Part shown: piece after piece, positions 28,838 through 63,100 of the stretch
Layout: every line of letters begins with the position of its first letter
Position numbering within the stretch: position 1 is the stretch's first letter
NCBI GenBank assembly: GCA_947561715.1
Contig: OX387201.1
Span: 4,606,001 to 4,670,000 of the forward strand
Length of the DNA stretch: 64,000 nucleotides
From: Ascidia mentula
Lineage: Eukaryota; Chordata; Ascidiacea; Phlebobranchia; Ascidiidae
Direction: 5' to 3'
Program-made: the position numbers and the translations under genes
Notes under the pieces: generated by a model
What the model saw: the letters and a program-made list of their open reading frames with translations, nothing else
What the model was told of the DNA's origin: nothing
Databases searched by the model: none

Positions 28838-29974
28838 TCAAGGGTGGTCAGGTCCGAAAGTTACGGTATCCAACTCTGTGGAGGAATGCTTGTACGAAGA
28901 ACCGTCGGGGAAGGTGGACGAAAAGGTGGAAAAAAATTCGCCCGCGAAGCCGACGACGTCGTTGGGCCGTCGCAACAGCAGGAACTGAAAAAAATCGGCC
29001 AGAAGTGCCGACGCCTCGGGGTGCTGACGGAGGTACGTTTCGTGGCCTGCCTTCAGCTCTTCCTTGCGCTGTAGGAAACGGGAGTTCATCTCCATGTCCT
29101 CTTCCCAGTTGAGGGACTTCTTCCCGAACACAGGTTTAACCTCCACTTCATCCCGCTCGATCAAGCGTGGAACCTTCTCAAGGGTTGCAATGGCTGGTGA
29201 ACCCACCTGTACCCTCATGGTCATGTGACCATCTTCCATAAAAAAGGTTTGCCAAGTGTATGGAAGGTCTCTATGTGAAGAAATGCTGCGCTCGATTCCG
29301 TACACCTGCAGCTCCTGCATTCCCACCTGTTGCTTTCGTTCCTCAAGAGGTTTGTACTCAGTGTCCACCAATTTCCCGGAGTCAGAATCGAGAGTAATGA
29401 AAGTCATCTCATCGCGCACCTCTTGTCGAATCAACAGGCGCTGCAGAAGAAGATTGGTACCCTCCGTGATAAAACCGCTTAGGTCTTGCGGTTCAAACTT
29501 GTGGACAGTTTTTTTAATTTCATCACCCTGTATAACTTGTCGCTTGACAGTGAGGATTCCTGTGTCAGCTTCCACAGACATTTGTGTCTTTTTTTCCAAC
29601 TCATGCCCAGGGACCTTCACATACTCTATGTGATCTTGCTGCACAAGGGACAGATCATTCGGCTTTAAATAGGTGGTAATGGTTGTTCCCATTGGAGTGT
29701 CTTCTACCTTTCCATGACTATTTGCATGAATAAGAATCAAAATATCTCCAGCACGTGTAACTTTTTCAACGTTGGTGGTAAATTCACCAACAGTTTTTCC
29801 ATCATCAGACACTGTTACCAATTCATCTTTGAAAATGCATAAATTCAGATCGTCTTGATCAATATTTTGCAAAAACTGAACAGCATTGTCACTTGCTTGG
29901 GCCAACTCCTCTTCTACTGGAGTGGAAGCTTCTGGATCTGAAGGTTTTGGGATCTGTGATTCTATGTCATCCAT
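28838..29974 (-). CDS. CATIP: ciliogenesis-associated TTC17-interacting protein (CATIP), 378 aa
   Basis: CATIP binds TTC17 and promotes actin polymerisation needed for cilium formation. One long exon encodes the whole recognisable protein. I take the ATG at 29974 (MDDIESQIPKP). The frame continues to an ATG at 30010, but an acceptor (TTTGCAG) lies at the boundary near 30000, so a 5' non-coding or short coding exon upstream is likely. Diagnostic regions include VQVGSPA, KPVFGKKSLNWEEDME, SRFLQRKEELKAGHETYL and the C-terminal RIIa-like helix pair (ADFFQFLLLRRPNDVVGFA), which closely follows the human C-terminus. Human CATIP is 387 aa. Presence of this gene fits an animal with motile or sensory cilia. 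Confidence 0.9.
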   Translation of the reverse strand: MDDIESQIPKPSDPEASTPVEEELAQASDNAVQFLQNIDQDDLNLCIFKDELVTVSDDGKTVGEFTTNVEKVTRAGDILILIHANSHGKVEDTPMGTTITTYLKPNDLSLVQQDHIEYVKVPGHELEKKTQMSVEADTGILTVKRQVIQGDEIKKTVHKFEPQDLSGFITEGTNLLLQRLLIRQEVRDEMTFITLDSDSGKLVDTEYKPLEERKQQVGMQELQVYGIERSISSHRDLPYTWQTFFMEDGHMTMRVQVGSPAIATLEKVPRLIERDEVEVKPVFGKKSLNWEEDMEMNSRFLQRKEELKAGHETYLRQHPEASALLADFFQFLLLRRPNDVVGFAGEFFSTFSSTFPDGSSYKHSSTELDTVTFGPDHP

Positions 29975-32900
29975 TTGTAACCAATACCTATCCTGTGGTT
30001 CTGCAAACAATGTTATGATGTGTTAATTGTTTAGCCTTAATCATGAAATTTGGTGCAAGGAAAAACACAAAAACAAGTATAAAACATTCAAAAACAACAT
30101 TAACACATAGACACAGCACAATTTTTTGAAATAGTTACAGTTTATTGCTGACAAATGTCACATTACGGCAATGGTTTCGATAATGTAAGCATTAAACATA
30201 TGTGTATGGTGATGGCCAATTTAGAATTTACATTATTTTTTTTGAAAATGGTATGTTCTTGTCTAATCTGCAACATATATTGTTAAACCTAATCTTAAAA
30301 AATTAGCATTCTGACTATACAATGAACAAGGGAAGCTGCTTTTTTGAATTCAGTTATGTCATATACCAGAAGTACTGTCGTAATCCATTCTTGAGCAGGT
30401 AACAACTACTAAACATGGGATATTCTGTTGGTTAGTTAGTTTAACAAGGAATAAGTACAAAAATTATTAAATATAAAAAGAAACACAAACACGGCATCAA
30501 ATTACTTTGTAAAAAGAACTCTAATGGATCAGTCCTTTCGCTGCTCCGATATAAACGCCACTTTTGTGGTTGTCATGGTACCCATAGAAATCATAAAATT
30601 TGCAGTTCTTTTTTAAAGTTGGCCATCTTGTTTAGTTGTTAGCTTGTGTAAGTATTGTATCAGATGTATTAATATTTCCAACTAAACTTTTACTATGGAA
30701 TAACAGTAAAAATTTTCAAAATTTTATACTAATTCTTCATCTCTCAAAAAGTATGAACAGGCTAATTATACCATAAACTTCTGGACAACAAAAAAACAAA
30801 TACTTTGGGTCGGGCGTGATATTTTATTTTTATTGATTAAAGCAAGGCTGTTTTTTTTCGAAACAGGTAAACAGGAATCATGTCATAAAAAATTATCAAG
30901 CGCAATTTATGATTTTGAAATGTACGCATTAAATTTAAATTAGTCATATTACTTTCCCTAAATGTAATCATTTCGATTAGGCGAATATGAGACTTTGAAA
31001 GGGTGGAAATTAACCAGTACCATTGTCTGTATCCGGATTTGTGACAGCGGTCTCAGCGGATCATGACGTCATCAAAACATCTTGCCATCCCGCTGTGAGT
31101 TAAATTGGATCGGAAATGCGCTTGGTTTTGGCTGGACTTCGCATTGGATGATCCGCGTTCGCTTTAGCGGCGCTGCGAAGTTTATGAAACTTTTGACGAA
31201 CAATGACCTCCCGCTAGGAAGAGTGTGCGTATCACTCTCTACTTAATTAAATTACCAGCGCGAGGATACTTTTGTGAAGGCGATGCTTTTCGGGAAACAG
31301 CTGGCGAAGAACTTGCACAGTGTCTTTCGCGTTCCACGATGAACGATAAATTTCACTGAAATATTATTCTCCCTGTGCTATCATTTTTTTGAACTGCTGT
31401 TTTTATTAGGGTGTGATATGATTTTAATTTTATATGGTAGTTTTGTAAAAATTGTTTGTGGTAACTTTCGCACATGCTGTTTGTACTTCAAAAGTAATTT
31501 TTACCGATAATCGTTTAAAGATTTCGAAGTAGCTTGAAAAAATAATTAGTTTCAAATCTATACAAAGGATGATCGAATAACTGTCAAAATTTCGCACAGA
31601 TGCATTACTTGCTGCAATCAACTTTATCAACACGAATTAAAACAAAAAATAAACTTCCAAAAATTAAAAACCTCATGTCAAATGAAGAATCTACCGACAT
31701 AAAAAGTGATCGAGTCTTTGATGTTCCGAAAAAAGTTTCCTAATCCGAGTCACACCAAGGAGTAGTCTAAGAAAGTTTGATTATATTAATGGAAAACCGC
31801 AGCACGGCTGCATGCAATTAAATAGCGTGTGAGGTCGTTTGTGTAGGTCACCCAAATGCGACAATAAAAGCATCTCGGTGAATTGCAACGGGTGCAACGC
31901 AAATCAAATTATCTCAAGTCGACGTTCTCAGCTCTGGAGTTTCCAGTCCGCGACTTTAACCTCAATCGCCAATACCGTAACAGTGTGATAGCATTATAAC
32001 CACTGGTCTCGCACGACTTTTAATATACCCTTCCCCTCCATAAACCGATTATGCGCTTCGTCGATCCGGGTCGGTGGGGGCTACTTTATCCGGCACGTTT
32101 ACGCCAAGTCGGGCTTCCAACCGCTGCCAGGTCAGGCTTTGACTCGGAACAGTTGAATTACGCACTAATTGCCCCTGCACGCTTCGAAACAATGGCGGGC
32201 GGACTGGGTGCGTTTATGAGTGATTGCTTTTGCGCTGTCATTGCCTTTGCCGCGTTGGCGTTGCTTTGAAATAAACGCAAGCGCCTTGACTTGATGACCC
32301 CTTTGGGAGTTGGTCGTTGTTTGGCAAGGTTTTACATCAGGTCTTGTAACTTCAAATGACCAAAACATCCAGAAATGTAGATTTTTAGCATTTAATGCAA
32401 AATGTTCGGAGGTGGACTTTCAAACTTGAAACAACCGTGGGAAGGCGTCGCACAACTTTCTTTAAGTCAACCAAAACTTTTTAAACTCCCAACTAAAAAC
32501 CTAATCCACATTCACGCGTTCGGTCCAACCACTTAACACCCACAATGCACAAAACCGCATTGCACTTCATTTAAAAACCATCTCGCGACTCCTAATCCGC
32601 CATTAAACGGTGGATCGCGGGCGCATGTTTATATTTCCCATGCTGATGTCGATTGCATTTGGCGCCAGGCGGCTTACCAAGTCTCGTGCGCGCGATTTTC
32701 TAAATCCACATTCTCGCCTCCTGCCCGTCCGGTGGCGCCCGGCGGTCTGCACCCCTCACCGTTCCGGTATCGACGTCCAATTAACCGGCGGTGCACGATT
32801 GATATTAATTGTTGCCGCATAATGCACGGGGCGGTCCATCAATGCTCAATCATCCTGGCGCCTTCGTGTACTCCTTGCCCAAAGCATCACATTTTCCCGT

Positions 32901-41754: not shown

Positions 41755-42466
41755 TCAACCGTAGAGAGATTTGTCCTGGTCTTGGGTTGGTTTTTGAATT
41801 TCTTCTTCAGATGCATCGCTAATAGGTGATGTATTTCCTATGCACAAGCATACGCGTTGATTGCTTTTGTGATAAAAACAATGAGCAACTTACGAGTTAT
41901 CATAATTTGCGCCAAATAAGTGGACAACTAATATAAAATTTATGATAAAAAACATAAAATAATTTAGATTCATTAGGTTCACTGGCATCACAGCCAATAT
42001 GCATCAGTCTCTTCCCCAAAATCCCTGAAAAATCAAACTTGAGATTCGAACTAAAGACTCTGGAGTTACCAGGCCCAACTCCATATCGACAAAGCTGCAA
42101 GAGCTCAGCGGTTAGTAGGTGTAAATTGTGTCAAGAGAGCATTTCTGCAAAGACCTAAATCATTTACAAAAGGTTAGTATAAATACACCACAACGTCACT
42201 CAACCGTAGGGAGATTTGTCCTGGTCTTGGGTTGGTTTTTGAATTTCTTGAGCATTTTGGTGCACGCCGGTTTCTTCTTTGCCTATGTATGATGTTAAAA
42301 AAGTTGTAAATTGGTTTAAATCTGGCAAAAATCTAATTTATAACTGCCAGGGCAGAAATTAGGTATCGTTACCCCCATCATGTTGATACACGGTCATGTC
42401 TTTGCCGGATGTATGAAACGTTGGGTTTCCTACTATTTTGGAGTTACCGCTGAATTGTACAGACAT
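41755..42466 (-). CDS. short cluster protein B: cap exon with alternative terminal exons (58 aa)
   Basis: First exon 42373-42466 (94 nt, 31 codons + 1) encodes MSVQFSGNSKIVGN, then THTSG-like FHTSGKDMTVYQHDG; it ends G|GTAACG. It can splice in phase to 42200-42282 (GKEETGVHQNAQEIQKPTQ..., stop) or to 41755-41837 (GNTSPISDASEEEIQKPTQ..., stop). Both terminal exons end in the same QKPTQDQDKS motif and share flanking sequence, so they arose by a local duplication of about 440 bp. The cap exon is near-identical to the first exon of the TIR gene at 48063-48156. There is no TIR or membrane segment. No known family is recognised. It could act as a stand-alone assembly partner of the TIR protein (inference). 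Confidence 0.5.
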
Positions 42467-43633
42467 GGCGTTGGGAAAATTATTTACTGTCGCTTGAAAA
42501 TCTTTTAACTCAAAACAAAAACAAGAATGTGGATAATTCAAACAGAAAACACCATTTTATTGAATGTAAAAACTATCTTGGTTCTTGTTCTATGTTTAGG
42601 TAAAAATTATATCTGACAGTCATGGCACGAGAACAACCAATGTTAAGGAAGAAAAAACAAATTCCAAGAGTTAAGGAATGTGACAGGTAACTCAACTAAC
42701 CCTTCACCAACAAAGCTTTTCGGTTGTTCTTGTGTCATGCCTGTAAAATTACAATAACTATTATATTTTGCATAAACTAACTTAAAGTGACACCAATTTC
42801 ACCTTTTGTCTGCAACTACCTTTAGTTTTAAGCCTGCACACCTGACAAATCGCCCCACGTATGGCTTGATTATTCCTGTTATGAGTTTTACGTTTTGTTT
42901 CGAGTTCCTCTTTCACCGTGACGTAGGCAAGCTAGTAACAGCAGTGAGCGCGTCCTCGCTGTAATCTAGCTCTAAAATCTCCTCGCAACAACGCTGAATT
43001 AACCGCTTGATGCGACAAAAGTTGATCATTTTTACCTTTCCTGGTCAAAACAAAGAAGAAACGGTATTGTTTATTCCATTTACGGGTTTACTGGAAATTT
43101 AGCGATGCAACAAAACCTATTTTAATATATCTCACAACCAAACAGTCTTAAGAGGATTATATCAGCAATGTAACGTTTGTGAAGTTCAGTAAAGTTGAAA
43201 ACAACTGTTATGTATTGTTTGTTGTGGTAACAACAACGCATCTGCGTCTCCATGTAAGCTGAAAACAATTTTACATTCCAAAGAGGTTGTTTGTTTCTGT
43301 TCGGACACGATGTTGGAACCAGTGGGCTTCTGTGACGCCAACAAGGCAAATACGTCACAGGAATCGCCCACCTGAATGAATGTGGGGAGTCTGTATTGTC
43401 AAACCCAGCTCTTACGTGGGTTACCAAATATTGATGCATTACTCACCTTTGAAGTGGTTACTGTATAGTCAGCATCGTCTGTGGGTGGCTTTAGCATTGC
43501 GCAAAGTGTGGATATGGATGTTATTTACCATCTATTGTGACCAGATACATTTCATACATTACAAATTTATAAAATGCCTTTGCCTAATGGTTAATAAGGA
43601 TACATAGTCCAAGGCTTTTTGCATGCCTTACAA
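42358..43633. repeat. 1.28-kb segmental duplication, left copy
   Basis: Nearly identical to 48048-49325 at a constant offset of about 5690 bases. It carries the cap exon, the terminal exon at 42643-42740 and the two-exon unit at 43186-43497. Differences are scattered single substitutions, a few of which change predicted stops. Confidence 0.9.
42643..43497 (-). CDS. candidate small gene in the duplicated segment (left copy), unknown function
   Basis: Exon 43447-43497 (MLKPPTDDADYTVTTSK, 51 nt, excellent donor AAG|GTGAGT) is followed by an acceptor at 43372 opening VGDSCDVFALLASQKPTGS. That frame either stops at 43186 or can use a GAAT|GTAAAA donor in phase 1 to reach a terminal exon 42643-42740 (GMTQEQPKSFVGEG..., stop). 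In the right copy the terminal exon stops earlier after LVE, because of a single base difference (GAGTAA versus GAGTTA). No domain is recognised. Two intact copies and one decayed copy exist; whether it is translated is unknown. Confidence 0.3.
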
Positions 43634-45177: not shown

Positions 45178-48156
45178 TCAGATGTGTTTAAAGAGTTTTG
45201 CAAAATTTTCTTCCATATTTCCACTTGAAAAATCATAGCAGGTCTTTCTGGCCACAATGAAATCTTAAAACATAAATTGGCAGTTGGAATATATAGATGT
45301 TTTAATTTTTGTGATGTATGTAAACATAGTTTACTTTATTGAATTCAGATGAAAATTCCTACAGTTAAACTTCCAAGTTTAGTAAATGTTTGGATCGAGC
45401 AAAAAAAACTTGTAACAGACAGATGACACCGTGACAAACACGTTTCAACATTTGACATGTAGATGACTCACCTAACTCATTACTCAGGTGACCAGAATGA
45501 AGTTTAATTGGAATGATTTTTTTCTTGTAGCCAGCCGCCAGGCAGGCTTCCCGCATACACTTCTCGCTTTTGCAGTAGGCGTTAGACATACAAATCAACA
45601 CCACATCCGCTTCGTTTATGGCATCGCCGAGTTGCTCGTACATGTTGCCGCGCATCTCTTCGGTGTCAATCCAATCGTGTCCTAATTCTTTCAGTTTTGC
45701 TCCCAACTAAACAACGATTAAACACACACGAAATAATTTGTTTTGAAATTTCTTGTGCGTACAAACAAATTTACCAACTGAAACAAAACAAGCCTACATT
45801 GCAACAATGTGTTGACCAGAAAGGAGCTATTGGTTTTATGACCATCATTATTCCAGTGTGTGATTCGATATAGACGTTATTTTTTCTCGGACGCAATCAT
45901 GATTAACAACTTACATAACGTGGAACTTTCTTGTGTTTCCAAGAATAACTGATCATTATCTTCTTTTTTCTTATCTAAACAGACTGAAAATATTAAGGCA
46001 CATATAGTGTAGAACAGTGATTCTCAACCGATGGAAAATTTCCCAATAGTGGGAAGGGTAATTAGGCGGCACCTAAATATACAGAAGTAGTTACAAGAGA
46101 AAGACTATGTTTTGTATTCACTGTGTGTCGTACACTGTTTGAAATGTGATCACGAAATGCTTTAAAAATACAATACTTAAATTTTAAGTTTCAAAACTTC
46201 AAACAGTAGTGGGAAATAACGATTCCGTTTAAACTAAAAGAGGAAAATCATAAAAATCTTATAAACCACTTGTTTACAATATTATATTCAAAAAGTGTTT
46301 TTTGTTTACACCAAACTCCTCAACCCACATGAAGTTCGGCTAAAATTGATAACAAGTAATTAATAGTTTGGGTCCAAGAGTGTGGCAATAATTTACCTGC
46401 GACGATCCCGGGTTGGTTTCTTGCGGACTTCCTTGTGGCAATTGTGAGTCACCTTTACGTATACGATGTGTATCAGTTTAAGTGCAACTTGTAGTATACA
46501 GTGTGCTGGATAACTTAAATAACAATCACAAATGTTTCTTGATTGTTTGGATCGGTGTAACCAAAAGATTTACTGATACAATTTTTCTGATTCTTTTGCA
46601 CAACCGGTCTGGAAATATTTTTGATACACCTTATTCTTTTACCCTTGCAGCATGTGAAATTGCCATTAACCTACCTTGTTTGGCAGTACCCTTTTCCCCG
46701 ACGATTTGCGACTTTACAGTCGCACCTCGCATGTCGAATTTCGATCCACCATAACTGTCACCGTGGTTGTGTTGTCCTGCAAAAACACAAATTGTTCCAT
46801 GTGTTGGAACAGTAAACGATAGTAATGTGTTGCAAGCAGTTGCAAGCAGTTTCAAAATCTATTATAAATATGAGTTCTCTATACATATGCTCGAGCACCG
46901 TGACGTAAGCAAGTTACTGATTAACAGTAGTCGTTGCACCCACGCTGTATCCAAAGTTCTAAAATCTTCTCGCGCGAAGTGGTATGCCTACTTTAACTGG
47001 TATGCCTACTTTCTTGTGATTGATTTAGCAAAACTGACCCTTTTCCCAACTAATTATTAAATTTCCTTAAGTTAAAGGCACACCAGTTTCAACTTTTATC
47101 TCCAACTGCCTTTAGTTATAAGCCTGCACACCTGACAAAAATCACCACATGTATGACTTGTTTAATCCTGACATGAGTTTTACGTTTTGATTTGAGTTCC
47201 TCTTTCACCGTGAATAAGCAAGCTATACTAACAGCAGTGGGTGATTCCTCGCTGTATTAAAAGCTCTAAAATCTCCTCGCAACAACCCTGAATACACCGG
47301 TGGACATGCCATTTATCATATGTGAAAAGGAAGACTTGAGGTATCTTGGCCACGGGTGGGATATTAACCATGCAACAATGAATTGATCCAATACACTTCA
47401 TAAGCTTTTAACTGTTTGTAAACACCATTCTTTTACCATTATAACGACATATGAAATCGCTATTACCTTGGTTGATTGTACCGTGGTCACCGACGTATTG
47501 GGCGTTGATAGTTGCACCTCCCTGTTCAATTTTCGATCCGCGGTAATTGTCACCATGGTGAGCTTCAAAATACACAGTTTACGTATGTAAGGACAATATA
47601 GTAATTGAATTTGAAGTCAAACAGTAAACGAATTTCGAAAGTAGCAAAAGGGTTTTCAAAATAAGTTTTAATGCTCGAGCATATCTCGTGCAACAAGTTT
47701 AATTAACTATCGTCATGCAATTGAATTTGCGCAATAGGTCAACTTACAAGGGAATGTCAGGATATATTAGATCTAGTATATTTATTTAATTTTAAACGCG
47801 TCCATTGTTGGAAAATAGGAACAGGGTTTGGGGGCACAATGGGTTTACAGTCATGCAGCTCAAACTGTATGGTTTCAAAAAAATGTTTTTAATTTTTAAA
47901 AGATTTAATTGAATAAATGAGAAGAACCGTTGTTTTAAATGCCAGCTAATAACTCACTGTCCTCCTAACTCTAAACATCGATCATGTATTCATTCAAAAA
48001 ACTTTTACACTGTGACAAAGTTATAAAAAGTATATGTGTCTTAAATCGTTTGCTGAAATTACCCCCATAATGTTGATTCACGGTCATGTCTTTGCCAGAT
48101 GTATGAAACGTTGTCTTTCCTTCTATTTTGGCGTTACCGCTGAAGTTGACAGACAT
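45178..48156 (-). CDS. Gly/Asp-repeat TIR-domain protein (7 exons, 242 aa), previously unrecognised architecture
   Basis: Exons: 48063-48156, 47467-47562, 46675-46776, 46397-46452, 45915-45974, 45472-45706, 45178-45263. All are GT-AG and in phase (1, 1, 1, 0, 0, 1), 729 nt in total. Residues 1-31 are the cap (MSVNFSGNAKIEGK...GKDMTVNQ). Residues 32-97 are two repeats, each with GDxYxGSK, then GAT(I/V), then VG(D/E)xGTxxQG. Residues 98-116 are a Gln/Pro/Ser linker. Residues 117-242 are a complete TIR domain: first strand KKKIMISYSWKHKK, box-2 region GAKLKELGHDWIDTEEM, ADVVLICMSNAYCKSEKC, IIPIKL, and a final helix NFAKLFKHI. Glu189 in CMREA sits where SARM1- and plant-type TIR NADases have their catalytic Glu. 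No signal peptide or membrane segment, so probably cytosolic. The neighbours carry the same cap and repeat exons without TIR. TIR identification is firm; repeat function is unknown. Confidence 0.8.
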
Positions 48157-49325
48157 GGCGCTGGGAAACTATTTACTGTTGCTGGAAAATCTTTCAACTC
48201 AAAACAAAAACAAGAATGTGGATAATTCAAACAGAAAACACCATTTTATTGAATGTAAAAACTACATGAGTTCTTGTTCTGTCTTAAGGTAAAAAATTAT
48301 ATCTGACAGTCATGGCACAGGAACAACCAACGTTAACGAAGAAAAAACAAATTCCAAGAGTTAAGCAATGTGTCAGGTTACTCAACTAACCCTTCATCAA
48401 CAAAGCTTTTCGGTTGTTCTTGTGTCATGCCTGTAAAATTACAATAACTATTATATTTTGCACAAACTAACTTAAAGCCACACCAATTTCACCTTTTGTC
48501 TGCAACTACCTTTAGTTTTAAGCCTGCACACCTGACAAATCGCCCCACGTATGGCTTGATTATTCCTGTTATGAGTTTTACGTTTTGTTTCGAGTTCCTC
48601 TTTCACCGTGACGTAAGCAAGCTAGTAACAGCAGTGAGCGCGTCCTCGCTGTAATCTAGCTCTAAAATCTCCTCGCAACAACCCTGAATTAACCGCTTGA
48701 TGCGACAAAGGTTGATCATTTTTACCTTTCCTAGTCAAAACAAAGAAGAAACGGTATTGTTTATTCCATTTACGGGTTTACTGGAAATTTAGCGATGCAA
48801 CAAAACCTATTTTAATATATCTCACAACCAAACAGTCTTAAGAGGATTATATCAGCAATGTAACGTTTGCGAAGTTCAGTAAAGTTGAAAACAACTGTTA
48901 TGTATTGTTTGTTGTGGTAACAACAACGCATCTGCGTCTCCATGTAAGCTGAAAACAATTTTACACTCCAAAGAGGTTGTTTGTTTCTGTTCTGACGCGA
49001 TGTTGGAACCAGTGGGCTTCTGTGACGCCAACAAGGCAAATACGTCACAGGAATCGCCCACCTGAATAAATGTGGGGAGTCTGTATTGTCAAACCCAGCT
49101 CTTACGTGGGTTACCAAATATTGATGCATTACTCACCTTTAAAGTGGTTTCCGTATAGTCAGCATCGTCTGTGGGTGGCTTTAGCATTGCGAAAAGTGTG
49201 GATATGGATGTTATTTACCATCTATTGTGATCAGTTACATTTCATAAATTACAAATTTATAAAATGCCTTTGCCTAATGGTTAATAAGGATACATAGTCC
49301 ATGGCTTTTTGCATGCCTTACAATG
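48048..49325. repeat. 1.28-kb segmental duplication, right copy
   Basis: Near-identical partner of 42358-43633. Here the cap exon leads into the TIR gene, while in the left copy it leads to short terminal exons. The duplication therefore placed one cap exon in front of two different tails. Confidence 0.9.
48378..49187 (-). CDS. candidate small gene in the duplicated segment (right copy), unknown function
   Basis: Exon 49137-49187 (MLKPPTDDADYTETTLK; donor AAG|GTGAGT), then a frame opening at 49061 (VGDSCDVFALLASQ...) with a stop at 48876, or an internal phase-1 donor leading to terminal exon 48378-48430 (GMTQEQPKSFVDEGLVE, stop). A small exon at about 49373-49392 (DKETQEQ, phase 1 to 0) lies upstream and might belong to the same transcript. 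No domain recognised. Confidence 0.3.
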
Positions 49326-51325: not shown

Positions 51326-52262
51326 TTAGGTTTCGTCCATAGCCTCCATGCTTTTGGTTTCCTTTTGCATATTTCGTGGCGGTTGATTTCCTTGTTGATT
51401 TTCTAAAATAATATAATCCCTGTGTACTTAATGCAACCAGAACATACATCGTAGAAATGGAGCAACAAGGTATATGAGAATACCAGAAGTACTTTAATTG
51501 CATTACTTTTAGTTTAACAACAAACTGTGTTTCGAACAAAATGATTTATCCGTTATGAAATTACAGGAACATTACCACAGCATTAGAAATGATTGATAAG
51601 AAGAGAAACTATTTGTTATTTTACAAACAAATCCACATATTTAATACCGAAGTTGCAAGTTTAAGTTTCAAGTAAGTAGGCTATAGTCTTACGTTTGAGC
51701 CAGCTGGCTGTACATTGTGTACTAATACCATCACTACCAATTGCACTTACTTATACGAAGATGGTTAGTTACACTTTTGACATTTTTAAAAATTAGTAAT
51801 ACTACTATTTGCGTAATATTCGCAGTACCATCTCTGGCATCGTTTTTGTCCTCCGTTCTCTCACGTCTTTCATTTGTCTCGCGTTGGGGTGGTACTCAAT
51901 TTACAAAAACAAGTTATTAGCATCGAACCAAAACACAACAAAACAAAACAAAGTAAGGTAATATGCGTTACATTTGGCAATAACGTATATAATTAAATTC
52001 AAGTAATAATTACCCATATTCACAGTGTTATTGTCACCGATGCTTCCGGCTTGAACTGGACCTTGGAAGCTATATTTGCTTTGTTTTTGACCTATACACA
52101 AACCATGTAAATTCACTATTGAATGTAGACTTGAAGATATATAAGATCACTGATAAAGACAAATACCCTATTTTTAAACCTATTTACTCAACAAAATTAT
52201 AAAACCAAAATGCCTTATGTGTGTATATAATTACCTTGTTGGTTATTGGTCGGTGTCGCCAT
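51326..52262 (-). CDS. short cluster protein A: single-repeat protein (3 exons, 60 aa)
   Basis: Exons 52235-52262 (MATPTNNQQ, phase 1), 52014-52091 (78 nt, phase 1-1) and 51326-51402 (stop). The middle exon encodes GQKQSKYSFQG, PVQAGSIGDNNTVNMG, a shorter version of the repeat in the TIR protein. The last exon is hydrophilic, Gln/Glu/Lys-rich (ENQQGNQPPRNMQKE...). V-Q-A-G followed by I-G-D-N-N recalls RHIM-type and HET-s-type amyloid cores ([VI]-Q-x-G-x-x-N), but this is a resemblance only. The protein has no TIR domain and no membrane segment. Confidence 0.55.
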
Positions 52263-54359: not shown

Positions 54360-55196
54360 TCACAAAACGAACCGAGTATTGTACAAAAGGCTTTTGTTAC
54401 AGAGCGACCCGGCGAGACAATGACTCTTCTCTGCGTGGGACCCACATGACTATGACTTAATCGAGTTGCTGGTTTTAGGTTTATAGCCGAACTATGGTGT
54501 TGTTTCTTTGTATCGAAATCTACTGAACCCAATGTGATAATTTAAAGTTCAAATATATCTCATGGAATACTGTCAATAAAAGAATCGCTGTTTACTTTAT
54601 TTCTGTTGTTGCATAGAACTTTCCTTGTTGAACTTGCAATGCAACAATGTTGCCCTCGAAGCTGGTTTTAACAGTCATTTGATTGAGCAAATTTTTTTGG
54701 TTACAAAACAAACCTTTAAACAAACAGTTGTTTACAATTTGTTTGGTTGCAAGTTAAAAGCACATTGTTACATTGCAAGTATATTCTGTTACGTTTGGGG
54801 ATACAGTCAACTTGCCGGACATTTTGCAACAAATTTAAAACATTATAATTTTTTAAACATTTTTATAAACATACACAGGGCGTAAGAATTGGCATATGTT
54901 TTCATTTGGTTTTTCCCCTAGTGGTACAAACATGTACCCGTGGCGCAAGAAGGGGTTCTTTTGTTTGGCGAACCGGGACGGAAACAAAAAGGCTTTAATG
55001 TTACACAGGTGGCCCCAAGCTAACAAAACAATGGTCGTTTGAATACAGTTTGATGAAAAAATGGAAAGCAAAACAGCGTTCTTTAATGTGTTTTGTTTAA
55101 CTTGAAAATGTGGTTATCGATAAACTGATGGGTTAACTAAAAACAAAGATATGAAATTTAGTAACATAGATGCAAATTCCTAACAAACTATATTAA

Positions 55197-55390
55197 CTAC
55201 GCTGCTTGTTGACCAACAAGCGAACCGCTAATATTCGCATCTGGCAACATATACAACTTTTAATTGTTTTTTTGGGAATCGTTATTTTTGATGCCACAGT
55301 TACCTCTTGTGGATTTATCAATGCACATATCTGCTTGGTGTATCTCTGTCGTCATATGAAACGTGGTGTTGAGGCTGTTTTTAAAGACAT
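55197..55390 (-). pseudogene. array unit 1: damaged copy of the 94-nt cap exon + terminal exon
   Basis: The exon equivalent (55304-55390) is 87 nt instead of 94. One A is missing from an A-run after the start codon and six bases are missing further on, which shifts the frame after about four codons. The terminal exon 55197-55240 is intact (DANISGSLVGQQAA). Confidence 0.5.
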
Positions 55391-55574
55391 TCTAGGAAGC
55401 AAAAATGTGCCTGTTTTATGTATAAAATTTCTTACTTAACGTCTACCAAAAAGCAAAAACAAACGATGTTACTTTGAACGTACATTCTATTGCGTTTAGT
55501 GTTGTTGTGCTTTTGTTCCGCTTAACGAATTTCTTTCAATTGGCATTTCGGCTGCAATTCACCGCACAAAAATC

Positions 55575-55742
55575 CTAAATTGAAACGCATTGGCTTAACG
55601 CAGTTGGAATTGTTTTATCAGACTGTGCATTTTTGTAAACAGACTGGGTGTTGTCCAAAACCCATTTTAACGAGTCTTCTGCTTCGTTTCTCTCAGGTTT
55701 ACTGTTAAAACTGCAGTTACTGAAATTGTTGCAAACAGACAT
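55575..55742 (-). CDS. array unit 1: 55-aa frame MSVCNN..., unknown
   Basis: ATG at 55742. Starts MSVCNNFSNCSFN, resembling the MSVRNNF cap at 38614, with a potential phase-1 donor (AACA|GTAAAC) at the same place. Read through, it continues to a stop at 55575. The product is either a 55-residue peptide or a cap exon spliced onward. Three near-identical copies exist; none has a recognised domain. Confidence 0.3.
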   Translation of the reverse strand: MSVCNNFSNCSFNSKPERNEAEDSLKWVLDNTQSVYKNAQSDKTIPTALSQCVSI

Positions 55743-56999
55743 GGTGCCAAAAAAACTATACAGATCACCAAACAAACGTGCAAAGCTTGCAGCGACAAAG
55801 TAATCGTAATAGTGTACTTGTAATGCTGACTACAATAAACAACTTGTTTGTTCTAATGAGCGAATGTATGTTGATCGATGAGCTAACCTAAACTTGGATT
55901 CAAGTCAAACCTTACAAAATTTTTCCCACGTATGACTTGTGAAATCCTGCAAATAGTTTTTTGTACTGGTTGAGTTCCTCTTTAACCGTGAGTCAGCCGT
56001 AATGCGGTTGACGTTATTAAGGTTGATAATTGGATTAATTTAGAAAATTGATAATTGGTGGTTAGTTTCTGGTCGGACACGATGTTGCAACTATAGGGTT
56101 TATGTGACGCCCACCAGGTAAATACGAACCGAGTATTGTGCAAAAGGCTTTTGTTGCAAAGCGACCCGGCGAGACAATGATTCTTCTCTGCGTGGGACCC
56201 ACATGACTAAGACTCAATCGAGTTGCTGGTTTTAGGTTTATAGCCGAACTATGGTGTTGTTTTTTTGTATCTAAATCTACTAAACCCAATGTGATAATTT
56301 AAAGTTCAATTATATATCATGTGGAATGCTGTCAATAAAAGAATCGCTGTTTACTTTATTTCTGTCGTTTCGTAGAACTTTCCTTGTTGAACTTGCAATG
56401 CAACAATGTTGCCCTCGAAGCTGGTTTTAACAGTCATTTGATTGAGCAAATTTTTTTGGTTACAAAACAAACCTTGAAACAAACAGTTGTTTACAATTTG
56501 TTTGGTTGCAATTTAAAAGCACATTGTTACATTGCAAGTATATTCTGTTGCGTTTGGGGAGTTTGTGAACTTGCCGGACATTTTGCAACAAATTTAAAAC
56601 ATTATAATTTTTTAAACATTTTTATAAACATACACAGGGCGTAAGAATTGGCATATGTTTTCATTTGGTTTTACCCCTAGTGGTACAAACATGTACCCGT
56701 GGCGCAAGAAGGGGTTCTTTTGTTTGGCGAACCGGGACGGAAACAAAAAGGCTTCAATGTTACACAGGTGGCCCCAAGCTAACAAAACAATGGTCTTAAC
56801 TTTCTGCCTGTCGCGTTTGCGCTAATGTGCGGAAAATGCGTTTGAATACAGTTTGATGAGAAAATGGAAAGCAAAATAGCGTTCTTTAATGTGTTTTGTT
56901 TAACTTGAAAATGTGGTTATCGATAAACTGATGGGTTAACTAAAAACAAAGATATGAAATTTAGTAACATAGATGCAAATTCCTAAGAAACTATATTAA

Positions 57000-57200
57000 C
57001 TACGCTGCTTGTTGAACAACAAGCGAACCGCTAATATTCGCATCTAGCAACACATAAAACTTTTAATTTGTTTCTTGGGAATCGTTATTTTTGATGCCAC
57101 AGTTACCTCTTGTGGATTTATCAATGCACATATCCCCATCTGCTTGGTGTATCTCTGTCGTTTCGAAAAACGTGGAGTTGAGGCTGTTTTTTAAAGACAT
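57000..57200 (-). CDS. array unit 2: two-exon short cluster protein (45 aa)
   Basis: First exon 57107-57200 is 94 nt ending in phase 1 (AGAG|GTAACT), exactly the length and phase of the cap exons at 42373-42466 and 48063-48156. It reads MSLKNSLNSTFFETTEI then GDMCIDKSTR. The terminal exon 57000-57043 (44 nt) gives DANISGSLVVQQAA, matching the GANISGGSVVGVQ part of the 38371-38463 repeat exon. Probably a minimal member of the family: a cap plus a truncated repeat. Confidence 0.4.
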
Positions 57201-57382
57201 TGCGGAGCAAAAATGTGCCTGTTTTATGTATGAAATTTCTTACTTAACGTCTACCAAAAATCAAAAACAAACGACGTTACTTTGCACGTACATTCTATTG
57301 CGTTCAGTGTTGTTGTGCTTTTGTTCCGCTTAACGAATTTCTTTCAATTGGCATTTCGGCTGCAATTCACCGCACAAAAATC

Positions 57383-57550
57383 CTACATTGAAACGCATTG
57401 GCTTAACGCAGTTGGAATTGTTTTATCAGACTGTGCATTTTTGTAAACAGACTGGGTGTTGTCCAAAACCCATTTTAACGAGTCTACTGCTTCGTTTCTC
57501 TCGGGTTTACTGTTAAAACTGCAGTTACTGAAATTGTTGCAAACAGACAT
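57383..57550 (-). CDS. array unit 2: 55-aa frame MSVCNN..., unknown
   Basis: Copy of the frame at 55575-55742 with one or two substitutions (for example Glu to Val after NEA, and a final Met). See that entry for the alternative splice reading. Confidence 0.3.
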   Translation of the reverse strand: MSVCNNFSNCSFNSKPERNEAVDSLKWVLDNTQSVYKNAQSDKTIPTALSQCVSM

Positions 57551-58789
57551 GGTGCCAAGAAAACTATCACCAAACAAACGTGCAAAGCTTGCAGCGACAA
57601 AGTAATCGTAATAGTGTACTTGTAATGCTGACTACAATAAACAACTTGTTTGTTCTAATGAGCGAATGTATGTTGATCGATGAGCTAACCTAAACTTGGA
57701 TTCAAGTCAAACCTTACAAAATTTTTCCCACGTATGACTTGTGAAATCCTGCAAATAGTTTTTTGTACTGGTTGAGTTCCTCTTTAACCGTGAGTCAGCC
57801 GTAATGCGGTTGACGTTATTAAGGTTGATAATTGGATTAATTTAGAAAATTGATAATTGGTTGTTAGTTTCTGGTCGGACACGATGTTGCAACTATAGGG
57901 TTTATGTGACGCCCACCAGGTAAATACGAACCGAGTATTGTGCAAAAGGCTTTTGTTACAGAGCGACCCGGCGAGACAATGACTCTTCTCTGCGTGGGAC
58001 CCACATGACTAGAGTTGCTGGTTTTAGGTTTATAGCCGAACTATGGTGTTGTTTCTTTGTATCTAAATCTACTAAACCCAATGTGATAATTTAAAGTTCA
58101 AATATATCTCATGGAATGCTGTCAATAAAAGAATCGCTGTTTACTTTATTTCTGTTGTTGCATAGAACTTTCCTTGTTGAACTTGCAATGCAACAATGTT
58201 GCCCTCGAAGCTGGTTTTAACAGTCATTTGATTGAGCAAATTTTTTTGGTTACAAAACAAACCTTGAAACAAACAGTTGTTTACAATTTGTTTGGCTGCA
58301 ATTTAAAAGCACATTGTTACATTGCAAGTATATTCTGTTGCGTTTGGGGATTTTGTGAACTTGCCGGACATTTTGCAACAAATTTAAAACATTATAATTT
58401 TTTAAACATTTTAAAAAACATACACAGGGCGTAAGAATTGGCATATGTTTTCATTTGGTTTTTCCCCTAGTGGTACAAACATGTACCCGTGGCGCAAAAA
58501 AAGGTTCTTTTGTTTGGCAAACCGGGACGGAAACCAAAAGGCTTTAATGTTACACAGGTGGCCCCAAGCTAACAAAACAATGGTCTTAACTTTCTGCCTG
58601 TCGCGTTTGCGCTAATGTGCGGAAAATGCGTTTGAATACAGTTTGATGAGAAAATGGAAAGCAAAATAGCGTTCTTTAATGTGTTTTGTTTAACTTGAAA
58701 ATGTGGTTATCGATAAACTGATGGGTTAACTAAAAACAAAGATATGAAATTTAGTAACTTTGATGCAAATTCCTAAGAAACTATATTAA

Positions 58790-58990
58790 CTACGCTGCTT
58801 GTTGAACAACAAGCGAACCGCTAATATTCGCATCTAGCAACACATAAAAGTTATAATTGGTTTCTTGGGAATCGTTATTTTTGATGCCACAGTTACCTCT
58901 TGTGGATTTATCAATGCACATATCCCCATCTGCTTGGTGTATCTCTGTCGTTTCGAAAAACGTGGAGTTGAGGCTGTTTTTTGAAGACAT
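58790..58990 (-). CDS. array unit 3: two-exon short cluster protein (45 aa)
   Basis: First exon 58897-58990 (94 nt, MSSKNSLNSTFF...) and terminal exon 58790-58833 (DANISGSLVVQQAA). Intact GT-AG junction, same phases as unit 2. It differs from unit 2 by a Leu/Ser change in the second codon after the start Met. Confidence 0.4.
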   Translation of the reverse strand: MSSKNSLNSTFFETTEIHQADGDMCIDKSTRGNCGIKNNDSQETNYNFYVLLDANISGSLVVQQAA

Positions 58991-59172
58991 TGCGGAGCAA
59001 AAATGTGCCTGTTTTATATATGAAATTTCTTACTTAACGTCTACCAAAAATCAAAAACAAACGACGTTACTTTGCACGTACATTCTATTGCGTTCAGTGT
59101 TGTTGTGCTTTTGTTCCGCTTAACGAATTTCTTCCAATTGGCATTTCGGCTGCAATTCACCGCACAAAAATC

Positions 59173-59340
59173 CTAAATTGAAACGCATTGGCTTAACGCA
59201 GTTGGAATTGTTTTATCAGACTGTGCATTTTTGTAAACAGACTGGGTGTTGTCCAAAACCCATTTTAACGAGTCTTCTGCTTCGTTTCTCTCAGGTTTAC
59301 TGTTAAAACTGCAGTTACTGAAATTGTTGCAAACAGACAT
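59173..59340 (-). CDS. array unit 3: 55-aa frame MSVCNN..., unknown
   Basis: Third intact copy, ATG at 59340, stop at 59173. Its predicted peptide is the same as that of unit 1. Confidence 0.3.
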   Translation of the reverse strand: MSVCNNFSNCSFNSKPERNEAEDSLKWVLDNTQSVYKNAQSDKTIPTALSQCVSI

Positions 59341-60596
59341 GGTGCCAAGAAAACTATACAAATCACCAAATAAACGTACAAAGCTTGCAGCGACAAAGTA
59401 ATCGTAATAGTGTACTTGTAATGCTGACTACAATAAACAACTTGTTTGTTCTAATGAGCGAATGTATGTTGATCGATGAGCTAACCTAAACTTGGATTCA
59501 AGTCAAACCTTACAAAATTTTTCCCACGTATGACTTGTGAAATCCTGCAAATAGTTTTTTGTACTGGTTGAGTTCCTCTTTAACCGTGAGTCAGCCGTAA
59601 TGCGGTTGACGTTATAAAGGTTGATAATTGGATTAATTTAGAAAATTGATAATTGGTTGTTAGTTTCTGGTCGGACACGATGTTGCAACTATAGGGTTTA
59701 TGTGACGCCCACCAGGTAAATACGAACCGAGTATTGTGCAAAAGGCTTTTGTTACAGAGCGACCCGGCGAGACAATGACTGTTCTCTGCGTGGGACCCAC
59801 ATGACTAAGACTCAATCGAGTTGCTGGTTTTAGGTTTATAGCCGAACTATGGTGTTGTTTCTTTGTATCTAAATCTACTAAACCCAATGTGATAATTTAA
59901 AGTTCAATTATATATCATGTGGAATGCTGTCAATAAAAGAATCGCTGTTTACTTTATTTCTGTCGTTTCGTAGAACTTTCCTTGTTGAACTTGCAATGCA
60001 ACAATGTTGCCCTCGAAGCGGTTTTAACAGTCATTTGACTGAGCAAATTTTTTTGGTTACAAAACAAACCTTCAAACAAACAGTTGTTTACAATTTGTTT
60101 GGTTGCAATTTAAAAGCACATTGTTACATTGCAAGTATATTCTGTTGCGTTTGGGGATTTTGTGAACTTGCCGGACATTTTGCAACAAATTTAAAACATT
60201 ATAATTTGATAAACATTTTTATAAACATACACAGGGCGTAAGAATTGGCATATGTTTTCATTTGGTTTTTCCCCTAGTGGTACAAACATGTACCCGTGGC
60301 GCAAAAAGGGGTTCTTTCGTTTGGCAAACCGGGACGGAAACAAAAAGGCTTTAATGTTACACAGGTGGCCCCAAGCTAACAAAGCAATGGTCTTAACTTT
60401 CTGCCTGTCGCGTTTGCGCTAATGTGCGGAAAATGCGTTTGAATACAGTTTGATGAGAAAATGGAAAGCAAAATAGCGTTCTTTAATGTGTTTTGTTTAA
60501 CTTGAAAATGTGGTTATCGATAAACTGATGGGTTAACTAAAAACAAAGATATGAAATTTAGTAACTTTGATGCAAATTCCTAAGAAACTATATTAA

Positions 60597-60729
60597 CTAC
60601 GCTGCTTGTTGAACAACAAGCGAACCGCTAATATTCGCATCTAGCAACACATAAAACTTTTAATTGGTTTCTTGGGAATCGTTATTTTTGATGCCACAGT
60701 TACCTCTTGTGGATTTATCAATGCACATA
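60597..60729 (-). pseudogene. array unit 4: copy cut by the retrotransposon
   Basis: The terminal exon (60597-60640) and the last 26 nt of the 94-nt exon (60704-60729) remain. The rest of the exon is displaced by the LTR starting at 60730. Confidence 0.75.
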
Positions 60730-61248
60730 TGTAAACGTCTATGTTCGTTTTGTTTTTCACACGCTTTATTTCTTTTTGTATTTTCACTTCACCTTCACTT
60801 TTACTCACATGTTTTTCTTTGTTTACTTACACTCACCTTTTATAATATATTTGTAATTATTTCTATTTTACTCGTTTTTATACGCCCGAGCAGTCACGCT
60901 TGCGTGGCAAACGTGGACAGTGATAATTGGTGTAAGTGCTGGCGGCGAAAAGAATAAGCGAAAAGCCAGGCAGTTCTCTGGTGGTGGCGAGTAGAAAGCA
61001 CTGTTTTTATTGTGGCGAGAAGTGATTGTTGTGAACGCTATATGTGCAGTGGAAAGTCCTTTTTGTATAAAAAACAACCGTTGTTTTATCCGTACTTTTA
61101 CCATTTTACGCTTTTATACCTATTAGCGCTTCCATTTTATTACAAAACTAGCCACCTTGGGCGTGTGACTCCAGGTCTTGGCGATAGGCCGTTAGTGCGG
61201 AGTAACCTGGGCGTTAGCCGGTTTAGAGAGAAGCTAATTTCGGTTACA
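60730..61248 (+). repeat. 5' LTR (519 bp)
   Basis: Begins TGTAAACG at the point where homology to the host array stops and ends GGTTACA two bases before the PBS, giving the usual TG...CA ends. An AT-rich TATAATATAT at about 60841 may be the core promoter. The end is inferred because the partner LTR is not in the window. Confidence 0.7.
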
Positions 61249-61268: not shown

Positions 61269-61312
61269 TCTGCTATCGCTTATAAGGGGTCACACGGCTT
61301 TCAGAGAACTTA

Positions 61313-63100
61313 ATGTCTTTTAATTTGTTTTTATCGCCACCGCGCTTTGTACCGGGACAAGATGTTGGCCAGTTTGTTGCCTTATTTGAATCGTACTGTG
61401 AGAGTGTGAAAGCTAGTGAGGAAGTTAAATGTCATCTTTTTTTGACATCAATTGATGATGACCTCCGCTGGCTAGTTCAGGGAAACGACAATAATGTTTT
61501 TCAACTGAAGTACGATGAGTTAATTAGCCGCGCCCTAAAGCAAGGTTCTGACCACTCGCGCCTCCATGAAACACGCGCAATGTTGTTTGGCCGGCGGCAG
61601 TTGCCACAGGAAAGCATTAAGGACTTTGTGTATGCTTTGAAAGCTCTTGGCGACAAGGCTTACCCTACGGAAGAGGCTGTTAAAAATGAGGTGTTATATT
61701 CATTACTCTTTGTTGGCATGTTGGACCAGCACATGGCCAGATCCCTGCCGCAACGGTTGGAATATAAACGGGACTTTTGGACGGCCGCTCAGATGGTCTT
61801 GTCCACGCATGTACCGGAAATGTCCCAGGTTTTAGGCGTGTGTCGTCGTGATGTTCAAGGTCCATCAGTATCAAAACAACCGGAAAAGGATGCAGACATC
61901 AGCGTTCGAGAATTCAAAAAAACTGTGACCGCGCTCCAGAAGGACATTGAGCTTGTACGCCGCGAGGTGCAGCGATTGGGGAAACCAACACCACATCAGA
62001 TGGCAGACAGGTTGGAGCGACGCTGTTATGCCTGTGGAAAACCAGGACACTTGCAAAGATTTTGCCCAATGCAAGGTAAGCGCGGCTTTCATACCAGTTT
62101 TACGCCTCGCAGGAATTTCAATAAAAGACCTGGTACCCCTGTGACCCAAGAGGCAAAAGCAAGCGTATGTTTGAAGGACACCGAACCAAAAACTTCGAAT
62201 CCTACCAATAATCAGAACACGAGCGAGAATCCCACCAAACCCCGATTAGTACGGTTTGTCAACATTTCTATCGCTTCAGAGCCGGTATGTGCTTTAGTTG
62301 ATACTGGTGCAAGTGTCTCTTTGATTAGCCAAAAGTGTTTAGAGACGTTGAACAATGATCGCCTCAAAATCTCCCCGCTGGGCCAAAACGAACGTTTTTC
62401 TGGAATTAACGGTAGTTTGGTTTCAGTTATTGGGAAAATCACTGTAAATGTTAAACTGGGAGGGCTAGATGTACCCACGTGTTTATATGTCGCGTCGGGC
62501 GTCGCTCACCACTTAATTTTGGGTTTGGATTTTCTGCAGAAGAACCGCTGCAGTGTGTGTTACGACCAAAATTTGTTGACAGCGGGCCGTGCTAAGGTGC
62601 CATTACTCTCGTCGTCTTTCGTACAACGTACCAGAGATATTTGTGTGACCGATGCCACAGAAGTCCCTCCAATGTCGGAGGTGTGGGCCACATGTCGTTA
62701 CCACCTTGACGTCCGCGGAGAAGACATCCCTGACTTTGAAGTGTATATTGCGCGAAGACCGGGGTTCACAGAAAAGATTGGACTCTGTACAGCGAACTGT
62801 GTTTCAACTGTGCGGAAAAATGAGGTAAACATACGTATAGCCAATTTTACCGATGACCCAATCCTAGTACCATCAGCAACTAGGGTTGCTGTCGCGATTC
62901 CAGTACACGCTTTTGGCAACGTTGCATGTCCATTATCGGAATGGTGTGTTGTTGTTGAAGATAGCAGTGTGCAACCTACAGAGGAAGTTTGCAATATCTC
63001 CTATGCACAGACACCGACCAATGAAGAAAGTTGGGAATGCATTCACCAAGGCGTGAGTATCGGAGATGGGTTGTCAGCAACCCAGAGGGAGGATGTTTAA
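61313..63100 (+). CDS. retrotransposon Gag - aspartic protease polyprotein part (595 aa)
   Basis: Residues 1 to about 190 are the capsid-like Gag region (MSFNLFLSPPRFVPGQDV start; no database match claimed). A single CCHC zinc knuckle follows at about 238-251 (CYACGKPGHLQRFC). A retropepsin-like protease follows with D-T-G-A at about 330-333 and the partner motif LILGLDFL at about 400. The frame stops at TAA 63098-63100, just before a segment that in related elements leads directly into RT. No frameshift is needed, since RT is in the same frame. Start chosen as the first ATG after the PBS leader. Confidence 0.9.
   Translation: MSFNLFLSPPRFVPGQDVGQFVALFESYCESVKASEEVKCHLFLTSIDDDLRWLVQGNDNNVFQLKYDELISRALKQGSDHSRLHETRAMLFGRRQLPQESIKDFVYALKALGDKAYPTEEAVKNEVLYSLLFVGMLDQHMARSLPQRLEYKRDFWTAAQMVLSTHVPEMSQVLGVCRRDVQGPSVSKQPEKDADISVREFKKTVTALQKDIELVRREVQRLGKPTPHQMADRLERRCYACGKPGHLQRFCPMQGKRGFHTSFTPRRNFNKRPGTPVTQEAKASVCLKDTEPKTSNPTNNQNTSENPTKPRLVRFVNISIASEPVCALVDTGASVSLISQKCLETLNNDRLKISPLGQNERFSGINGSLVSVIGKITVNVKLGGLDVPTCLYVASGVAHHLILGLDFLQKNRCSVCYDQNLLTAGRAKVPLLSSSFVQRTRDICVTDATEVPPMSEVWATCRYHLDVRGEDIPDFEVYIARRPGFTEKIGLCTANCVSTVRKNEVNIRIANFTDDPILVPSATRVAVAIPVHAFGNVACPLSEWCVVVEDSSVQPTEEVCNISYAQTPTNEESWECIHQGVSIGDGLSATQREDV

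What the first reader, a model, noticed from the sequence alone, without database searches (positions are those of the whole stretch)
45178..48156. A TIR protein with an N-terminal cap and Gly/Asp repeats: possible new assembly-gated effector
Seven short exons join in frame into a 242-aa protein: cap (31 aa), two related repeats of about 32 aa, a Gln/Pro/Ser linker, and a complete TIR domain. I know of no described animal family with this order. The repeats are rich in Gly, Asp, Asn and beta-branched residues spaced as in beta-solenoid or amyloid signalling motifs. A small self-assembling N-terminus in front of TIR would parallel fungal and bacterial amyloid-signalling effectors.
Basis: partly seen in the sequence, partly recalled or inferred. 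Interest (0 to 1): 0.92.

Follow-up and report, generated by a model that had tools for sequence, protein, structure and literature searches.

The report
Ascidian repeat-TIR gene in tandem family
This sea-squirt gene joins a small repeated N-terminal module to a TIR signalling domain, and it sits in a large tandem family whose other members carry the same module beside ZU5 domains or with only a short tail, which hints at a shared docking or assembly module in a so far undescribed immune-like gene cluster.

Summary
Seven minus-strand exons (48156-45178), all GT/AG and phase-matched, give a 242-aa protein: cap, two related 32-aa units, a Q/P/S linker and a TIR_2 domain (Pfam E 7e-18). It is one of many: 34 of 37 repeat-like exons found genome-wide lie in one array, all on one strand, over about 177 kb. 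In that array the module neighbours different outputs: this TIR gene, one decayed TIR copy, six ZU5 places and apparently repeat-only genes. One ZU5 paralog modelled in full (8 exons, 409 aa) repeats the intron phases of the TIR gene. Repeats show dN<dS. COX1 reads with the ascidian code. One module shared among neighbouring genes with different signalling domains is what a homotypic assembly module would look like, so assembly-gated TIR is the best single reading. Amyloid is not shown: AlphaFold is confident only for the cap, no solved structure matches, the RHIM/PP core is absent from all 50 units, and the cap is not demonstrably a repeat. No transcript was available. Real, apparently undescribed family; mechanism plausible, untested.

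The parts
48063..48156 (-). Exon 1: start codon and 31-aa cap
   Evidence: cap exons 77% and 81% identical at C69:4648374-4648466 and C69:4678662-4678754
47467..47562 (-). Exon 2: 32-aa repeat unit 1, phase 1-1
   Evidence: relatives
46675..46776 (-). Exon 3: repeat unit 2, phase 1-1
   Evidence: unit 1 vs unit 2 better than all 2000 shuffles
46397..46452 (-). Exon 4: Gln/Pro/Ser linker, phase 1-0
   Evidence: a 68% identical linker stretch follows a homologous repeat exon at C69:4682895-4682537
45915..45974 (-). Exon 5: first TIR strand (IRKKKIMISYSW...), phase 0-0
   Evidence: similar MISYxW stretches precede the TIR core in relatives at C69:2.66-2.68 Mb
45472..45706 (-). Exon 6: TIR core, with S-x-x-Y-x-x-S-x-x-C-x-x-E (candidate catalytic Glu189)
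   Evidence: motif found, its role recalled
45178..45263 (-). Exon 7: last TIR part and stop
48163..49311 (.). Upstream segment, duplicated at 42474-43621 (three aligned blocks, 91-97% identical)
   Evidence: families D8-D10
42374..42466 (-). Paralogous cap exon below the duplicated upstream segment
38112..38614 (-). Paralogous gene start: cap type B (38614-38534), second unit (38458-38369), 32-aa repeat (38207-38112)
52018..52080 (-). Divergent repeat exon
55668..59340 (-). Three cap-B-like exons (59340-59266, 57550-57488, 55742-55668) and two further cap-like exons (58990-58907, 57200-57117) in the 1.8-kb tandem units at 54.3-60.7 kb

Best explanation
It is a real gene of an ascidian, coding for an apparently cytosolic protein (no signal peptide visible by eye; no predictor was run). 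Its N-terminal module (cap plus two units rich in Gly, Asn, Asp and beta-branched residues) is a family-wide association module, and its C-terminal TIR domain is the output. Most likely the module lets family members gather on one another (TIR, ZU5 and repeat-only forms). Crowding then activates the TIR, either as an NAD-consuming enzyme or as a TIR scaffold. Shown from sequence: the gene structure, the family, the same module before different outputs, constraint on the repeats. Inferred: association, what triggers it, TIR activity, a role in immunity.
For: Seven phase-matched exons. TIR_2 E 7.1e-18. 34 of 37 repeat-like exons in one tandem array, all minus strand. In the array: one intact and one decayed TIR place, six ZU5 places, and a last exon that ends in SIIASG-stop in 5 of 8 copies. 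One fully modelled ZU5 paralog has the same phases as exons 1-4 of the TIR gene. dN<dS in 90 of 94 computable repeat pairs out of 136, median ratio 0.29, pairs not independent. Candidate catalytic Glu motif in all 12 nearest TIR loci L033-L044, which overlap in part.
Against: No direct evidence of self-association; AlphaFold2 is not confident for the repeat. Only one intact TIR copy in the array; the other is split and has stops. Cap exons show dN slightly above dS in all three pairs tested. The Glu motif also occurs in two Toll-like TIR loci (L001, and L002 with Phe for Tyr) and in none of the 18 weaker TIR loci L045-L062. No transcript.
Confidence: 0.5

Rival explanations
1. The module is a new metazoan signalling amyloid: each unit is a beta-arch, units of different proteins template one another, and the fibre clusters TIR domains.
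For: Short Gly/Asn-rich units, often two or three per gene, shared between neighbouring genes of different output; single, two- or three-fold repeats are reported for fungal and bacterial amyloid motifs (PMC9815663, passages). The second-unit (N2) profile matches the repeat profile at pairwise E 1.4e-4, probability 53%.
Against: RHIM/PP core in 0 of 50 units; no known amyloid among the 11 PDB sequences matched by the repeat profile at E up to 10; N-terminal position; no NLR seen with the module (capped list); structure prediction inconclusive.
Confidence: 0.17
2. The module is an ordinary folded domain (small beta-solenoid or a beta oligomer) that binds a ligand or partner; the TIR protein is a sensor or adaptor and no polymer forms.
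For: Cap predicted with pLDDT blocks of 90, 94 and 81 over its first 30 residues; conserved G, D, K and V-G-D positions in the repeat; the tandem expansion looks like that of recognition genes (inference).
Against: No fold matched; repeat predicted with low confidence; no ligand-binding family matched above cut-off.
Confidence: 0.22
3. Two things side by side: a repeat-only gene and TIR exons that are rarely or never spliced to it, or a recent fusion without function.
For: Apparently repeat-only relatives exist; the second TIR copy is split with stops; a copy with repeat and linker has no TIR match at E up to 0.05 near it (C69:4682895-4682537); no canonical poly(A) signal near the stop.
Against: Exon 4 ends in phase 0 at a GT and exon 5 starts in phase 0; the TIR exons have no start of their own; whole frame open over 242 codons.
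Confidence: 0.11

Closest known systems
HET-S/NWD2-type fungal amyloid signalosomes (HRAM motifs)
   Same: Short repeated beta-prone units attached to an effector; neighbouring genes share the unit; two units in the effector
   Different: No sequence match; units lie N-terminal; no NLR seen with the module; animal; amyloid not shown
RHIM proteins, above all TRIF (TIR plus RHIM, PMC9444067 abstract in a listing)
   Same: A TIR domain combined with a putative assembly motif
   Different: RHIM core absent from all 50 units; motif N-terminal and repeated; RIPK1 homologues are reported as not found in tunicates (PMC12119088, passage)
Bacterial BASS motifs with BELL or TIR domains
   Same: BASS motifs occur, less often, with TIR domains (PMC7889193, passage)
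   Different: Sequence relation not tested directly; here animal exons and an N-terminal module
FIIND/ZU5-UPA proteins (PIDD, NLRP1, CARD8)
   Same: A paralog in the array carries ZU5 followed by a region with HFT where PIDD-type proteins have HFS (recalled)
   Different: The window gene has no ZU5; neither UPA nor Death nor CARD was detected in the paralog by Pfam
TIR_2-type TIR genes of the same genome (C69:2.66-2.68 Mb)
   Same: Similar TIR exons, up to 69% identity
   Different: No repeat or cap match there

Membership tests
TIR domain proteins (Pfam TIR_2) | Profile match over the full domain | tested here: met
   PF13676 E 7.1e-18, profile 1-121 of 122
TIR NADases | Glutamate in the S-x-x-Y-x-x-S-x-x-C-x-x-E region | tested here: met
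   E189; motif in all 12 nearest TIR loci. Its meaning is recalled, and it also occurs in Toll-like loci L001 and, with Phe, L002, so it is not diagnostic
TIR NADases | NAD cleavage | not testable with these tools
   needs an assay
RHIM/PP amyloid motif | Core G-(I,V)-Q-(I,V)-G (PMC7885112, passage) | tested here: not met
   0 of 50 units, also 0 of 50 with the bare tetrad
HET-s-type or other signalling amyloid | Sequence relation to a solved signalling amyloid | tested here: not met
   profile of 25 repeats against PDB chains: 11 sequences at E up to 10, none a signalling amyloid
HET-s-type or other signalling amyloid | Beta-solenoid/cross-beta fold | tested here: inconclusive
   AF2 pLDDT 55-59 in the repeat, pTM 0.32, no secondary structure assigned, no fold match
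HET-s-type or other signalling amyloid | Motif shared with a neighbouring receptor (NLR) | tested here: inconclusive
   shared with neighbouring ZU5 and repeat-only genes; no NACHT place in the array among the 95 scored of 317 candidates
HET-s-type or other signalling amyloid | Fibre formation | not testable with these tools
   needs ThT, microscopy
Module family of the C69 array | Cap and repeat exons with the same intron phases as a ZU5 paralog | tested here: met
   (one paralog modelled in full)

The most novel reading that the evidence does not exclude
A chordate lineage evolved its own, non-RHIM amyloid signalling system: a tandem array of genes in which one repeated beta-arch module is combined with TIR (effector), ZU5 (possibly self-cleaving regulator) and no domain (adaptor), so that polymerisation of any member can recruit the TIR output.
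Probability: 0.15. Interest if true: 0.92.

Novelty: new variant of a known kind. Interest (0 to 1): 0.66.

Why it matters
A 2021 review asks whether RHIM is the only signalling amyloid of metazoans and their viruses (PMC7889193, passage). This array offers a concrete candidate in a close relative of vertebrates: one module, several kinds of output, small enough to express. Even if no amyloid forms, it would be a new N-terminal association module linking TIR and ZU5 signalling in an ascidian.

Tried and rejected
Protein-database searches gave nothing. Even a ZU5 paralog of this genome found no relative there at E 10, so that database says nothing about other tunicates. A repeat profile against prokaryotic genomes could not be run. 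Cap as a third repeat unit: unproven. RHIM: rejected. The best PDB profile match (7awz, Scone-E, E 2.4e-4; a designed protein by recall) covers only positions 11-32 and no stretch of it passes alone; taken as compositional. Rfam gave no match in the window at gathering score. Looking upstream of the closest TIR relative for its N-terminus was not conclusive. Papers: 9 of 10 searches used. Listings seen (no paper); passages only in PMC12261475, PMC7889193, PMC8195603, PMC12119088, PMC9815663, PMC7885112. 'Undescribed' rests on these searches only.

Full report
Organism. The window is G000:C69:4606001-4670000 of a 196-Mb assembly. The mitochondrial COX1 gene of that assembly has 16 AGA/AGG codons in the matched stretch. 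With table 13 they read as glycine, among them conserved positions of MIGGFGNWL and PGGGGDPILYQH; table 2 gives 16 stops, table 5 gives serine at those places, table 1 gives 5 stops. Table 13 is the ascidian mitochondrial code (its restriction to ascidians is recalled).

The gene. One search finds seven minus-strand exons with GT/AG borders and agreeing phases (0-1, 1-1, 1-1, 1-0, 0-0, 0-1, 1-stop), 242 aa. Residues 1-31 form the cap, about 32-98 the two units, 99-116 the linker, and 117-242 hold the TIR part. Pfam TIR_2 matches 122-238 with E 7.1e-18. PADLOC shows weak matches to bacterial TIR/SEFIR effectors (best E 2.7e-4); NCBIfam shows one match far below its cut-off. The one PDB match to the TIR part is weak (Cat1, described as a filament-forming CRISPR-associated TIR, E 0.016). 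The TIR holds S-x-x-Y-x-x-S-x-x-C-x-x-E, with E189 at the place of the catalytic Glu of TIR NADases (recalled). The motif is in all 12 nearest TIR loci (L033-L044, partly overlapping), in L001 and L006, and with Phe in L002; it is in none of L003-L005, L007 and L045-L062. Since Toll-like L001 has it, it is not diagnostic. The first TIR exon cannot start a protein by itself: its in-frame upstream codon is the acceptor TAG, and the only in-frame Met lies inside the first strand.

The family. Searching the whole genome with the two repeat exons gave 25 matches at E up to 10, 23 of them on C69:4.644-4.821 Mb, all on the minus strand, and 2 on C1. A near-consensus repeat gave 37 at E up to 10 (26 at E <= 1e-3): 34 in that array, all minus strand, two on C1:4405-4406 kb, and one weak match at C69:3583730. 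The cap of the window gene finds 6 exons, 5 in the array and 1 on C1. A second cap type finds 20, all in the array. Counts are lower bounds, as the tool states. I held about 164 kb of DNA from these places, window included; five stretches of the array (4695571-4705170, 4713526-4724802, 4727902-4730952, 4760001-4772051, 4780408-4804915) were not fetched.

Outputs. In the array the module precedes different ends. (a) TIR: the window gene, and a second place at C69:4707558-4706671 whose TIR match is split by about 0.7 kb and holds stops; it looks decayed. (b) ZU5: six of 79 genome-wide ZU5 places at E up to 10 lie in the array; many of the 79 are partial matches and a good part lie below the family cut-off. 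The paralog at C69:4745569-4742843 reads as eight GT/AG exons, 409 aa, cap - second unit - repeat - linker - ZU5 - further region, with Pfam ZU5 E 4.5e-7. Its first four exons have the same phases as the TIR gene's. For the other five ZU5 places I did not build gene models. Its stretch FEVEHFTKFKV recalls the HFS autocleavage site of PIDD-type ZU5 proteins (recalled, a lead only). No UPA, Death or CARD domain was detected. (c) Apparently repeat-only: a last exon rich in Ser, Pro and Gln ends in SIIASG-stop in 5 of the 8 copies shown; the other 3 read on past that point, one of them after an early stop, so exon ends there are uncertain.

Receptors. NACHT gave 95 scored places out of 317 candidates, none in the array. 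Death gave 29 places, none in the array.

Constraint. For 17 ungapped repeat exons, 94 of 136 pairs gave a usable estimate and dN<dS in 90 of the 94, median ratio 0.29; the pairs are not independent. Against this, all three cap pairs tested have dN slightly above dS at low divergence.

Structure. AF2 with 29 rows: mean pLDDT 71, blocks 90, 94, 81 for the cap and 55-59 for the rest, pTM 0.32, no secondary structure assigned. Foldseek found no match at E up to 10, so VIA-align had nothing to compare. A lone solenoid rung would show no in-chain hydrogen bonds (inference), so this neither supports nor refutes a solenoid.

Internal relations. Unit 1 and unit 2 are related (0 of 2000 shuffles as good). 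Cap and unit 1 are borderline (89 of 2000), cap and unit 2 not (1796 of 2000). Cap and repeat profiles do not match. The second-unit (N2) profile matches the repeat profile (pairwise E 1.4e-4, probability 53%) and matches the cap weakly (E 0.0024, probability 12%).

Against known amyloid motifs. The RHIM/PP core G-(I,V)-Q-(I,V)-G (PMC7885112, passage) is in 0 of 50 units. A 25-sequence repeat profile finds no signalling amyloid among PDB sequences. Fungal effectors carry such motifs at the C-terminus and receptors at the N-terminus (PMC7885112 and PMC9815663, passages); here the module is N-terminal to the effector. So membership in a known amyloid family is not met, while 'works like one' stays open. 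RIPK1 homologues were not found in tunicates (PMC12119088, passage); that fits, but does not prove, a lineage-specific replacement.

Mechanism. The strongest clue is combinatorial: one module, neighbouring genes, several outputs. That is the signature of homotypic adaptors (Death-fold, RHIM, fungal and bacterial motifs). I therefore take association through the module, with TIR activity raised by crowding, as most likely (0.5). The physical nature of the association (amyloid, solenoid stack, ordinary oligomer) is undecided.

Limits. No transcripts, no other tunicate sequence, no experimental data. The protein database used returned no relative even for the ZU5 paralog, so absence there means little.

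Noticed in passing
window 42474-43621 and 48163-49311: Segment of about 1.15 kb duplicated 5.69 kb apart, ending just upstream of two related cap exons: shared upstream sequence of tandem paralogs.
   Followed up: partly
window 54364-60731: Tandem units of about 1.8 kb, three or four copies, mostly 94-100% identical (one aligned block 72%), carrying cap-like exons.
   Followed up: partly
G000:C70:2095161-2615808, C52:21.16-21.45 Mb, C1:24.99-25.16 Mb, C2: ZU5-like matches at 79 places at E up to 10, many clustered on C70 and many partial. What precedes them was not examined.
   Followed up: no
G000:C71:14.2-15.35 Mb and 0.68-0.95 Mb, C70:0.3-1.6 Mb: Large clusters of NACHT matches (95 scored of 317 candidates), suggesting an NLR-like expansion in this ascidian.
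   Followed up: no
C69:2660585-2683461: Second cluster of TIR_2-type genes with similar TIR exons.
   Followed up: partly
last exons of repeat-only genes, e.g. C69:4820014-4819916: The exon holds an inner ACTACAG/GTACGAG that could act as a splice donor, so short and longer forms may alternate.
   Followed up: no
window 61286-63100, plus strand: 604-codon open frame with a zinc knuckle and a DTGA aspartic-protease motif: looks like a retrotransposon gag-protease frame (labels by recall).
   Followed up: no
window 28838-30022, minus strand: 394-codon open frame resembling CATIP by recall; a BTB/Kelch-like gene by recall at about 21.2-25.9 kb.
   Followed up: no
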